Of a stretch of DNA of 64,000 bases, positions 38,301 through 50,300 are shown in pieces. Made by a program: the position numbers and the translations under genes. Source of the stretch: Amphibalanus amphitrite (lineage: Eukaryota; Arthropoda; Thecostraca; Balanomorpha; Balanidae); assembly GCF_019059575.1 (NCBI RefSeq), contig NW_024881539.1, positions 1,240,001 to 1,304,000 on the forward strand, read 5' to 3'. Below the pieces are notes generated by a model. That model searched no databases and was not told where the DNA came from. It saw only the letters and a list, made by a program, of their open reading frames with translations. Positions within the stretch are counted from its first letter, which is position 1, and every line of letters begins with the position of its first letter.

Positions 38301-41300
38301 CCGTCTGAACTTCAAATTTTTAACATCATAGCTGCGGTTTATCAAAACGCTCAATAAGATATTTAAGATATTTGTTATTTAGGTTATTTGGTTTTTGATA
38401 AGGTATTTTCTACATTAAATTCCATTACCCCGTCCACACGATGCGTGTGACCACAATGACACCGGGTCTGTCGGACGACCTGCGGTCTCCGGTCGCTGAA
38501 TGAACGGCACTCGTCTGGTGACGGGTCGACCGGCGTCCGTGATCAGCCGCCCCGGGAGAGGCTCTTCCCGGCCGTCTCGAGGGTCCTGCAGTCGGCACCG
38601 GCGACCAGCTAATCAGGCTAGGCCGTCCGGCCACCTCCCACGCGCTCCCCGCCTACTCCGAGTTGCTCCCGCGGTGGCCAGGTCAGAGTGGCTGACACCC
38701 TCACGGCCACAACGGGAGGCGGACATGGAAACGGAGCTATACATACACACTACACAGCGCCCTGTAACGACGGCGGTGGAGGAGGAAAGGGTAAAGACCA
38801 GACATGAAAATATCTCCCGACTGATGTGGGCGGAAATTCAGAGCGTAATATATTATTTTGGACAGATCGCTGCAAGACGGAAGTGCAGACTCTGTGTTTT
38901 CGTTTGCTTTGACGAAACAAAGCAAGTAATTTAGAAACTATGGTCACTGTGTCATCCCAGACTTTTGCATTTCCTGGCTATGCCCAGCCCCACCTGTAGC
39001 TCCCAACCCATCACCTCTCTCGCTGCTCCCCTCTGCACCCTATATTACGCCGCAGCTGCCAGGCCGTTCCCACTCGAAGCGGCACATCTCCGTTGTCGAT
39101 TGCGTCGCGACTCTGCCGCCTCATCGGCTGCGAGTGGCGACTTGGCTCGTCAGTCGGCTCAGAGCGCGCCCCTCTCGCCTGAAAGAGGCGCACGCTCAAT
39201 AACGAGCCAACTTTCTGTGACGAGCTCCGCCCCCGTGCCGTTGTCCGGTCGACCCTCGTGTCAGTCGGCTGCGTCGGGAACAGGAGACGGCCGAACGGAC
39301 TCGTCTGGCGTGGGACACGACGGGCGGAAGGAGCTTGGGATCGTTTTGAAATGCCTTGTAGAGGAGTTTGCCTGATTGGGTAGATAGGGCTCGGGACAGA
39401 CTGGGAGTCGGGGACCTTTAGCACGGCTTGGAAAGGAAAATATCAAAGCGATATCACCTTCAGCTCAACTGAGGTAGAGGGAATAGGGGACCTTTTAGCA
39501 CATTGCAGAATGCAGATTGACGACCATGGCACTTGCTCCCGATGTTGAGTCTTTTATTTGTCTTTCAAACAGGTATAAGACGGACAGATTATATGCCTTC
39601 TATGTTCGTAATGAATTCAAACAGCTTATGTTCAAATACATACACTCAATGATGGAAGGTATGCCGTAACTTTGGTTTTGGACTTTGAAGGAGCTTTTCA
39701 TTGGCACCTTTCCTTACCTTTTTTAAATAACCAGTATCTGGACTCTGCTATTGGCGCAGACCCCGGTCGCAGGCCCGCATTAGTCGCTTCGTCTCCAGTT
39801 CTCAATTGAGCGAGCCCGCATCCTCTGCGTGTGTGCGCTTCACTTGGCTCGCTGGATCTACCCGGTACCCTCTGTCTGGTCCCACCAGCTGACTCTTCCC
39901 CGCACTCTGAACCGGTTCTGTACTGCTCCTATTCACTAGTGCTCACGGTAGTCAGCCCTACCGAGCAGCAGTGGTAGATAGAGCCACACAGCTGTCGCCA
40001 GAAAAGACTGACCTTACACTTGGTGGCCTGGCCATCTTCAAAGGACTGGGCGATGCCGGCCAACGTGGTATACGTCGGTACATGTGTTATACATGTGCTA
40101 TCATTTGATGTCCGTCAAGACAGCCCATATTCAGCCCAGATTCAGCCCGGATTCAGCCCATATTCGGGACACTTCCGATCAAGCTGAAACTCGCACACAA
40201 TGTAGGCCATGACATGCCCAATCCACAGTCCAAGTCATTCGGTGGCACTCCCAGCCGTTTGACCTACAGAGGTCAGCAAAGGTCACGTGGCCCAAATTTG
40301 CACAGCAGATTGTGGCCCACCCAGTAGAGCTAGAGCGCTAAAAATGGCACCAATCGACTCGCCAGCATCTAATCTTACTTTTCCAACACTCATTTGACCT
40401 CTCAAGGTCATGCGATGACCTAAGGTCATTTGTGGGCTATGTCGAAAATACACTTGCACAGCAGTTTTCGAGTAGATGGATTGACCGAATTCCAAATCAA
40501 AGCACATCATCGGGTAGCTCATAGGCCTTAGTAACTTTCCTTAGAAACCGCTTTTCGATATGTGACCCCGTTTGACCTCGGCAGGTCAAAATGTGCAAAT
40601 AAACGACACTCAATACGTCGCAGCCCGGATTCAGCCCAGATTCGGGACACCTCCGATCAAGCTGAAACTCGCACACAATGTAGGCCATGACATGCCCAAT
40701 CCACAGTCCAAGTCATTCGGTGGCACTCCCAGCCGTTTGACCTACAGAGGTCAGCAAAGGTCACGTGGCCCAAATTTGCACAGCAGATTGTAGCCCACCC
40801 AGTAGAGCTAGAAAGCTAAAAATGGCACCAATCGACTCGCCAGCATCTAATCTTACTTTTCCAACACTCATTTGACCTCTCAAGGTCATGCGATGACCTA
40901 AGGTCATTTGTGGGCTATGTCGAAAATACACTTGCACAGCAGTTTTCGAGAAGATGGATTGACCGAATTCCAAATCAAAGCACATCATCGGGTAGCCCAT
41001 AGGCCGTAGTAACTTTCCTTAGAAACCGCTTTTCGATATTTGACCCCGTTTGACCTCGGCAGGTCAAAATGTGCAAATAAACGACACTCAATACGTCGCA
41101 GCCCGGATTCAGCCCAGATTCGGGACACCTCCGATCAAGCTGAAACTCGCACACAATGTAGGCCATGACATGCCCAATCCACAGTCCGAGTCATTCGGTG
41201 GCACTCCCAGCCGTTTGACCTACAGAGGTCAGCAAAGGTCACGTGGCCCAAATTTGCACAGCAGATTGTGGCCCACCCAGTAGAGCTAGAGCGCTAAAAA

Positions 41301-47300: not shown

Positions 47301-50300
47301 TGTGCCACAATCTGCTGTGCAAATTTGGGCCACGTGACCTTTGCTGACCTCTGTAGGTCAAACGGCTGGGAGTGCCACCGAATGACTTGGACTGTGGATT
47401 GGGCATGTCATGGCCTACATTGTGTGCGAGTTTCAGCTTGATCGGAGGTGTCCCGAATCTGGTCTGAATCCGGGCTGCGACGTATTGAGTGTCGTTTATT
47501 TGCACATTTTGACCTGCCGAGGTCAAACGGGGTCACATATCGAAAAGCGGTTTCTAAGGAAAGTTACTACGGCGTATGGGCTACCCGATGATGTGCTTTG
47601 ATTTGGAATTCGGTCAATCCATCTACTCGAAAACTGCTGTGCAAGTGTATTTTCGACATAGCCCACAAATGACCTTAGGTCATCGCATGACCTTGAGAGG
47701 TTAAATGAGTGTCGGGAAAGTAAGATTAGATGCTGGCGAGTCGATTGGTGCCATTTTTAGCGCTCTAGCTCTACTGGGTGGGCCACAATCTGCTGTGCAA
47801 ATTTGGGCCAGGTGACCTTTGCTGACCTCTGTAGGTCAAACGGCTGGGAGTGCCACCGAATGACTTGGACTGTGGATTGGGCATGTCATGGCCTACATTG
47901 TGTGCGAGTTTCAGCTTGATCGGAGGTGTCCCGAATCTGGGCTGAATCCGGGCTGAATCTGGGCTGAATATGGGCTGTCTTGATCAACATCTATCATTTG
48001 ATGTGCTGCCTACCGACTTCACTGCGTTTTGCTGCTTCTGCTTGTTTGTGCGTGTCGGCGTGCAATGACATTTGCTGACTGTATATAAACAAGTCTGGCT
48101 GCTGGAGGTACGCATGTGTATCGTTATTTGTGATCGCACGATAAGCTTGCTCGGATATTTGTAAGAGCATGCGTCAATAAATATGATTACGATACGATAT
48201 GCAATACAACGTTTTACTGTCGCTGGCAATCCCAAGGGCATGATATGTAACTCTAATGGCAGTGCAAGTTGTCAGTACACCCCATTTATTTTGGCGGTGT
48301 CCATGACTCCACAGCTTCTTCAGCCCTGGATGGATCCGGCAGGGCTAGTCGTCATGAGCGGTGGAGCGGTGGAAAGTGAATACCTGATTTATAAATTGAA
48401 GTCAACCCGCATTCATATTGCATGCATCAATATATCGCTGATCTGCCATTCTTGGAGTCATTTCATGAAGACTTCATATCATTATTGAGTGTCTCCGTTA
48501 AACGTATTGCAAAAAGAAGGGACGCTGGTATATGTGCTATCAGAGTCAGAACGATTTATTCGCTTCATTTATCATGCAAGCGTGCCGGCCTGCAACTTAG
48601 CGGAAGCACGGAATCTATAGCGAAGTTCGAGTGAATTAAACCTCGGTGGTAAAATGGAGGAGCGAGAATGCAAAGAGGATTAATCTGGCACAGTGGATCA
48701 ACTTGTGGCAGAGCTGAATACACTGAAGAAAACAACCACAGCCACTAAGCCATAATCAGCACTAATTAATCCTTTCTTGCAGTTAGGCTGAACGGTTGGC
48801 TGCTTTTAACTCTTGTGAAAAAATGATTAGGTTTTACCAGGCCTCATTCATATGATTTGTTTGCATCTCAGACTGTAGGTACAGTGCGGGGGGGGCTGCT
48901 CAGTGCTCAGTGCACGGCACCTATAGAACAGCTATGCACAAATCTCTAATACATTATAATGCTGATGCTGCATCAAACGCAGTTCGAATCAATCAGTCTT
49001 AGTTACCATTTGCGAAGGGTATGGACTAAATTTTGAAACATTTAGCAACTAAGTATTAGGTCGGACGCTGTATAATCAGCTCTGCACAATACATATCGTC
49101 AACCGTTTTCCGTTCAGTGCCGTTTGCATTTTTAGTTTTACCAATGCGCTTTGGATGCTGAAACCTGATTGGTGATGTGCGGTCCCATTGCGGAACATCT
49201 GTGATTGACCTGGATACCGTGTCCATTACAGGTGATCTGTTCGACATGTTGTTACCTATGCTCAGCATCTACCAGGAATACGTCCGAAATCATTACTGCA
49301 GTCTCAAGGTGAGCTCATTTCAAAGGAAAATATCATTTAATTGAAGACCAATTACGAATGGCCTTCGTGTCATTTAGTTTATCTCGATCTTCAAAGATCA
49401 GGGTTCAAGCGTTATTTTAGTTGTTTTCTATGTCTGTTTGGACAGTATGGAACTTCCAACGAGGCAGGGGAACTGAGAACGACGGTTAGCTGTGATACCA
49501 GTCAACCATAAATCGTCAATGCATGAATAAAAATGACCAATAATTTATGATCCATTCCATTTTGAAGCCCTTATTACTTCTTATTAATCGTAAATATATT
49601 TAGCAAATGTATTTAATACATTTAGGTCCCCTGTGAGGGGCACATGGCTTCGCCGAACCCACCGTTTCACCTTAGCTGCAGTGCAGCGGTCGACCTTAGG
49701 CTGACCTTTGACCTCACGACCACCAGGTGCTCTCCGAATGCAAGCAGAACCAGCAGTTTTCGACGTTTCTGGGCCGACTAGAGGCGAAGTCCACCTGTCA
49801 GGGCCGCACGCTGGAGACCTTCCTCACCTATCCCATGCACCAGGTATGGTAATCAGTGTATGCTGAAAATCCCATGCTGCATCAGGTATGACCCAGGCAA
49901 TGGGAGACAGGGCTGCACGTTGGAGATCTCCCTCACACGTCCCATGTACCTACGATATAGGTATACGGTATCATTGGCAATGACAGGACGAGGAATCAGA
50001 AAAGCACGCTAGTCTTTAACGTTATTTTAAAAGGTCCTGTCCTTATTTTTCATTTAAATCTTTTCATTTCATCCATTCATTTTTTGTCATTTTCTTCTTA
50101 CCTTTAAACACTTTTTACAATGCATTTTCCTTGTTGGCAGCTCTCTCTTCTGTTATGAAAGCCATCGGGTGCGACTACAGGCATACTAAATCAAACTGTC
50201 TCGGAAACTGATACTCCGGAGATCCCTTTCCTCTATGGCGCCTGCGTCGATCTATCTCCATTATCCAGTCATCAGTCACCGTGCGACCAACAACAGCTGG

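What the first reader, a model, noticed from the sequence alone, without database searches (positions are those of the whole stretch)
40107..47991. A satellite array that is itself a transposon: foldback-like element with 478-bp satellite arms
Seen: both outer edges carry the same roughly 50-bp sequence in inverted orientation, flanked by a direct repeat TATCATTT that extends to 14 bp because the right flank also reads GATGT. Inside, about 14 monomers face one way and about 2.3 the other, meeting at one junction. Known: Drosophila FB elements have long inverted termini built of tandem repeats and 9-bp duplications. Inference: this satellite moves, or moved, as a foldback element, and arm length varies by unequal exchange. 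It could explain satellite dispersal in this genome.
Basis: partly seen in the sequence, partly recalled or inferred. Interest (0 to 1): 0.8.

Follow-up and report, generated by a model that had tools for sequence, protein, structure and literature searches.

The report
Satellite array that is a transposon
A block of repeated "satellite" DNA is really a jumping gene made almost wholly of that repeat, copied to many places in this genome, which shows how such repeats can spread.

Summary
The element is 40108-47990: ends ATGT[CCG/TGA]TCAAGACAGCCC, 14.0 and 2.3 satellite monomers (478 bp) head to head around a 25-bp filler, flanked by a 10-bp duplication CTATCATTTG. The exact terminus occurs 279 times in the unnamed 807.5-Mb assembly, reversed-pattern control 0. 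Of 28 copies with both ends read, 22 have exact 9- or 10-bp duplications; swapped flanks gave 0 of 756. Each of the 28 is mainly monomers in two inverted arms; 3 share a 241-bp middle, 5 carry apparent nested insertions. Four groups (10 copies) share an exact centre at different target sites, so satellite palindromes moved as units. Arms of siblings can differ greatly. A paralogue of the flank lacks the element, though an 11-bp gap overlaps the target site. This is a non-autonomous foldback family, probably moved by a Mutator-like transposase (inferred; such domains exist here). No autonomous copy was found. It is a Tetris/Galileo/Muta1-like design carried to the extreme.

The parts
40098..40107 (.). 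left target site duplication CTATCATTTG (10 bp)
40108..40142 (+). left terminal cap, ATGTCCGTCAAGACAGCCCATATTCAGCCCAGATT
   Evidence: terminus pattern 279 times in the genome
40121..40165 (+). subterminal 11-bp tandem units, 4.1 copies (CAGCCCAGATT)
   Evidence: the monomer majority sequence begins with two such units
40143..46832 (+). left arm: 14.0 monomers of 478 bp
40621..44922 (+). three successive copies of a 3-monomer block (1434 bp); same-position monomers 99.6-100% identical, others about 97-98%
46833..46857 (.). 25-bp filler at the head-to-head junction; identical junction in copy L009
46858..47955 (-). right arm: 2.3 monomers, inverted
47933..47977 (-). subterminal 11-bp units of the right end
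47956..47990 (-). right terminal cap, reading ATGTTGATCAAGACAGCCC on the - strand
47991..48000 (.). right target site duplication CTATCATTTG (10 bp)

Best explanation
The array is one copy of a large family of non-autonomous foldback (long-TIR) cut-and-paste DNA transposons whose body is almost only satellite. Each end is a roughly 35-bp cap followed by 478-bp monomers pointing inward; the two arms meet head to head. Shown by sequence: fixed termini, 9-10-bp target duplications, many copies, and movement of whole satellite palindromes (copies sharing one exact junction at different target sites). Inferred: a transposase acting in trans, most likely Mutator-like given the duplication length, binds the terminal and subterminal repeats, excises the palindrome and inserts it elsewhere. 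Between moves, the arms grow and shrink by duplication or deletion of blocks of monomers (unequal exchange or slippage), and the palindrome centre is replaced from time to time. The dispersed satellite in this genome is therefore, as far as the sample shows, spread by this transposon.
For: Termini and TSDs: 22 of 28 complete copies exact, 13 of 9 bp and 9 of 10 bp; mismatched flanks 0 of 756. Genome: 144 + 135 exact termini, control 0. In the first 100, 35 convergent pairs; 24 of these 35 have one CCG and one TGA end, permutation p 0.0009, as expected of an element with two distinct ends. Monomer marker 1602 times, control 0; in the first 100 places, all 11 clusters of two or more read + then -. 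Sibling junctions: window + L009; L012 + L022 + L028 (the only 3 exact matches in the genome); L013 + L045 (the only 2); C363 + C1044 + C597 with a shared 241-bp middle; all 10 have exact TSDs and these differ within each group. Sibling arms differ: 14.0/2.3 against 4.97/14.29. Block duplications: lag 3 in the window, 5 in L021, 8 in L010; a deleted monomer present twice, about 1.55 kb apart, in C365. Near-empty paralogous site. MULE domains in the genome: 111 matches, 150 of 204 candidates scored.
Against: Six of 28 copies lack an exact TSD: L010 and L016 have none; C124 has an altered right end and none; L025 and L043 differ in a homopolymer run; C367, the longest, has the same 9 bp on both sides but offset by 3 bp. 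No autonomous element was found, so the transposase class is inferred from TSD length. No allelic empty site was seen; the paralogous one has an 11-bp gap across the TSD. 30 of the first 100 exact termini have no exact partner within 25 kb (a partner with any mismatch would be missed). Monomers of the siblings window and L009 match only loosely by position beyond the shared junction (best pairs 5-12 differences in 478).
Confidence: 0.92

Rival explanations
1. An ordinary tandem satellite that was captured inside two TIR ends once and then spread by segmental duplication or ectopic exchange, not by transposition.
For: Six of 28 copies lack an exact TSD, as recombinant products would.
Against: Duplication of a segment copies its flanks too; here the TSDs differ between copies that share an exact junction, and 22 of 28 copies have TSDs exactly at the same terminus.
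Confidence: 0.04
2. The same foldback transposon, but mobilised by a transposase outside the Mutator-like group (for example a P/Galileo-like, Rehavkus or Merlin-like enzyme).
For: Foldback structure arises in more than one superfamily: Galileo is a P-superfamily element (PMC3573991, passages seen). No autonomous partner was found here.
Against: TSDs of 9-10 bp fit Mutator-like elements (8-10 bp in the Muta1 paper, PMC5225508, passages); MULE domains are present. Other transposase families were not searched.
Confidence: 0.25
3. Array length changes by rolling-circle or gene-conversion processes tied to the palindrome, rather than by unequal exchange.
For: Identical monomers occur in opposite arms of one copy, 5 of 842 pairs, against 1 of 34720 between copies, so the arms seem to exchange sequence within a copy.
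Against: Blocks of 3, 5 and 8 monomers and the twice-present deleted monomer of C365 are what unequal exchange or slippage gives.
Confidence: 0.3

Closest known systems
Tetris, foldback element of Drosophila virilis (PMC4079207; abstract, passages, section 3 and section 16 part 1 read)
   Same: Long TIRs holding tandem repeats (about 220 bp), TSDs of 8-10 bp, no autonomous copy found, repeats also found as kb-size arrays.
   Different: Tetris has flanking, repeat, inner and middle domains and only three structurally complete copies; its authors suggest that larger arrays may have disrupted transposition. Here the body is almost only satellite, 22 of 28 copies have exact TSDs, and copies with arrays of up to about 10 kb have clean duplications.
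Muta1 and other mosquito MULE families (PMC5225508; passages seen)
   Same: Muta1 is called a type-2 foldback TE, with subterminal short tandem repeats (12 bp there, 11 bp here), TSDs of 8-9 bp, many non-autonomous relatives.
   Different: Muta1 encodes its transposase, and no 478-bp-like satellite arms are described in the passages seen.
Galileo of Drosophila mojavensis (PMC3573991; passages seen)
   Same: TIR-only copies exist, and tandem repeats within TIRs vary in number between the two arms.
   Different: P superfamily; repeats of about 210 bp in 2-3 copies, against up to about 15 monomers per arm here.
Drosophila FB and sea urchin TU elements (features from recall; the sea urchin element is cited in PMC4079207)
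   Same: Long inverted termini built of tandem repeats, TSDs of 8-9 bp.
   Different: Their repeat units are much shorter (recalled).

Membership tests
Foldback (long-TIR, tandem-repeat) DNA transposons | long inverted termini built of direct repeats | tested here: met
   28 of 28 complete copies have two opposed arms (27 with a single switch; L012 has one small extra reversed piece)
Foldback (long-TIR, tandem-repeat) DNA transposons | fixed terminus with target site duplication | tested here: met
   22 of 28 exact; control 0 of 756
Foldback (long-TIR, tandem-repeat) DNA transposons | dispersed copies at different sites | tested here: met
   279 exact termini; TSDs differ between copies
Mutator-like (MULE) superfamily | TSD of 8-10 bp (PMC5225508 passages; up to 11 in one group of the table in PMC6446971) | tested here: met
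   9 or 10 bp in all 22 exact cases
Mutator-like (MULE) superfamily | MULE transposase encoded by an autonomous member with the same ends | tested here: inconclusive
   111 PF10551 matches in the genome, none inside the elements listed (compared by eye; only 100 of 279 termini were listed)
Tetris | sequence homology with Tetris TIRs | not tested
   no Tetris sequence was fetched
Drosophila FB element | sequence homology with FB | not tested
   not fetched; only a structural resemblance is claimed

The most novel reading that the evidence does not exclude
A satellite that exists only as a transposon: its arrays are mobile palindromes with no unique body, each monomer carries its own copy of the end-proximal 11-bp repeats, and the family persists by turnover of arm length and of the palindrome centre while using another element's transposase.
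Probability: 0.4. Interest if true: 0.75.

Novelty: new variant of a known kind. Interest (0 to 1): 0.6.

Why it matters
How satellite arrays reach new chromosomal sites is a long-standing question. Here the answer can be read from sequence: arrays of up to about 10 kb carry transposon ends and exact target duplications, and shared junctions at different sites show that whole arrays moved. The Tetris paper suggests that larger arrays may have disrupted transposition; here long arrays evidently did not always do so. Shared junctions and TSDs also give a direct way to time array growth after each insertion.

Tried and rejected
My first reading after one search was that most copies have short arms and a coding middle (note). 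One search rejected it: the short extra matches were a limit of the scoring, and the interiors are monomers.

A coding or captured origin of the 241-bp middle: one frame gives 50 open codons (L017:4260-4409) with a GTAAGT inside; Pfam 0 families, no convincing PDB match (best E 0.044), and no source elsewhere in the genome at the sensitivity, which finds only the three copies. Left open.

Known name for the satellite: a search for 478 bp + satellite + monomer gave 3 papers, none of which looked relevant from title and start of abstract. Paper searches showed no all-satellite foldback family in what I saw (listings, and passages or sections of four papers); this is not proof of absence from print. 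Host species: not identified.

Rfam and tRNA scans of the window: nothing. Empty sites for 15 further copies: the query did not complete. Genome count of the window's own junction: not completed.

Full report
What is there. The element runs from 40108 to 47990 and is 7883 bp long. Its arms are 14.0 and 2.3 monomers of 478 bp in opposite orientation, with a 25-bp filler at the junction. The duplication CTATCATTTG is at 40098-40107 and 47991-48000. Its apparent extension arises because the target also reads ATGT right after the duplication, and ATGT is the element's own first four bases. The window lies on contig C42 of an unnamed 807,550,619-bp assembly in 2644 contigs.

Copies. One search scored 40 of 589 candidates and listed 102 matches. 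I fetched copies from this list, and six short ones from the first 100 places, and located both ends of 28 copies on 27 contigs: 17; C124 and C537; C365, C367 and C597; L041-L046. All were recounted. The sample is biased to copies close to the window copy and to short ones; 414 bases of C597 were not read. Ends are ATGT, three variable bases, then TCAAGACAGCCC, except the right end of C124, which lacks four bases. TSDs are exact in 22 of 28: 9 bp in 13 (L009, L011, L012, L013, L015, L020, L022, L023, L026, L027, C597, L042, L046) and 10 bp in 9 (window, L014, C363 = L017+L018, L028, C537, C365, L041, L044, L045). Not exact in 6: L010 and L016 (none), C124 (none), L025 and L043 (homopolymer differences), C367 (same 9 bp with a 3-bp offset on the right). 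Swapping flanks among the 28 copies gave 0 of 756 matches of 8-12 bp (0 of 272 for the first 17).

Interior. Monomers cover 54% (L016) to 100% of the span between first and last monomer; 27 of 28 copies switch orientation once, and L012 has one small extra reversed piece. Three copies (C363, C1044 = L027, C597) share a 241-245-bp non-satellite middle, found in no other place of the genome; in C597 it is split by a roughly 1-kb insert with inverted ends. Five copies carry other non-monomer stretches of 174-3035 bp (L013, L014, L016, C124 = L019, L022) that I read, by eye, as later insertions; L026 has one of 41 bp. In five long pairs of 13-16 kb, 2-kb samples near the centre were all monomer in three; one (C108) held mostly non-satellite DNA with an open frame that looks like reverse transcriptase, and one (C192) held no monomer and looks gypsy-like (by eye).

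Genome scale. The exact terminus occurs 144 + 135 times, control 0 + 0. In the first 100 listed, 35 convergent pairs lie 1223-16202 bp apart (median 6098) and 30 ends have no exact partner within 25 kb. A 28-bp monomer marker occurs 857 + 745 = 1602 times, control 0. Its first 100 places (a listing cut-off, 9 contigs only) fall in 13 clusters when places up to 16 kb apart are joined: 11 with two or more places, all + then -, and 2 singletons. I saw no one-way array of two or more in that part; the remaining 1502 places were not seen.

Movement of whole palindromes. Junctions differ between most copies: 22 kinds among 28 by my own comparison. Four are shared: window and L009; L012, L022 and L028; L013 and L045; and the three copies with the 241-bp middle. 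For two of these, the exact junction was sought in the whole genome and found only in those copies; for the window's junction the search did not complete. All ten copies have exact TSDs, and within each group these differ. A shared arbitrary junction at different target sites means that the palindrome was already satellite-only (or had the small middle) when it moved.

Arm dynamics. Siblings can differ strongly: 14.0/2.3 for the window and 4.97/14.29 for L009. Beyond the junction, monomers of these two match only loosely by position (best pairs 5-12 differences in 478), so their separation is not very recent or later exchange has blurred it. Full monomers, 271 in 20 loci, differ by 1.92% on average within an arm, 1.93% between arms of a copy and 2.41% between copies; identical pairs are 17 of 1023, 5 of 842 and 1 of 34720. 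The window holds a 3-monomer block three times at 99.6-100% identity. L021 and L010 show lags of 5 and 8, and C365 has one deleted monomer at two places about 1.55 kb apart. This supports block duplication after insertion; unequal exchange is the simplest cause but is inferred.

Empty site. The joined flanks of the window copy match C505:442037-442380 across the insertion point at 85%. Alignment shows no element there, but an 11-bp gap takes in part of the target duplication. So it is a paralogous site without the element, not an exact pre-insertion sequence.

Two kinds of end. Of the 35 pairs, 24 have one CCG end and one TGA end, 5 are CCG/CCG, 2 TGA/TGA and 4 other (permutation p 0.0009). 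The TGA form contains the palindrome TTGATCAA. The element thus tends to have distinct left and right ends, as an ordinary transposon has.

Transposase. TSD length points to a Mutator-like enzyme. PF10551 gave 111 matches (150 of 204 candidates scored), with open frames up to 643 aa (514 aa among near-full-length matches), so a source in trans is plausible. None lies inside the elements listed, compared by eye; only 100 of 279 termini were listed. Other transposase families were not searched.

Comparison. Foldback elements with tandem repeats in their arms are known: Tetris (PMC4079207), Galileo (PMC3573991), Muta1 (PMC5225508), and FB and TU (recalled). This family works like them. It differs in degree: the body is almost only a 478-bp satellite, arms reach about 15 monomers (C367), and copies with arrays of about 10 kb and exact duplications occur (C363, 10,600 bp; C537, 9,913 bp; C365, 9,863 bp). 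I rate it a new variant of a known kind.

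Noticed in passing
40143-47955: The monomer holds 9 AGGTCA/TGACCT sites (20,000 Markov simulations: mean 0.26, maximum 4), including three TGACCT-N4-AGGTCA palindromes; 49 of 50 window matches of that pattern (up to 1 mismatch) lie in the element, chance 0.11. They could bind transposase or a nuclear receptor; untested.
   Followed up: partly
17488-17671, 27223-28591, 58213-58393: AGGTCA/TGACCT clusters also occur elsewhere in the window; outside the element there are 0.95 per 478 bp against about 0.23 for random sequence.
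   Followed up: partly
19698-26385: LTR retrotransposon of Ty3/gypsy type: 255-bp direct repeats 99% identical at its ends, one open frame of 1360 codons with RT, RNase H and integrase domains.
   Followed up: no
54768-55237: (AG)n array of 237.5 units, 97% matches.
   Followed up: no
63748-63997: 20-bp minisatellite AAATAGGAGGCCCCCTGGAC, 12.7 copies, reaching almost to the window edge.
   Followed up: no
L013:1364-2739, L014:6620-7118, L016:2047-5081, L022:5152-5325: Nested stretches inside other copies whose ends look inverted by eye: further DNA transposons that could date the host copies.
   Followed up: no
L036:1664-2670: Roughly 1-kb insert starting GGGGAGAG and ending CTCTCCCC with TA on both sides, inside the 241-bp middle of copy C597; Tc1/mariner-like by its TA target (by eye).
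   Followed up: no
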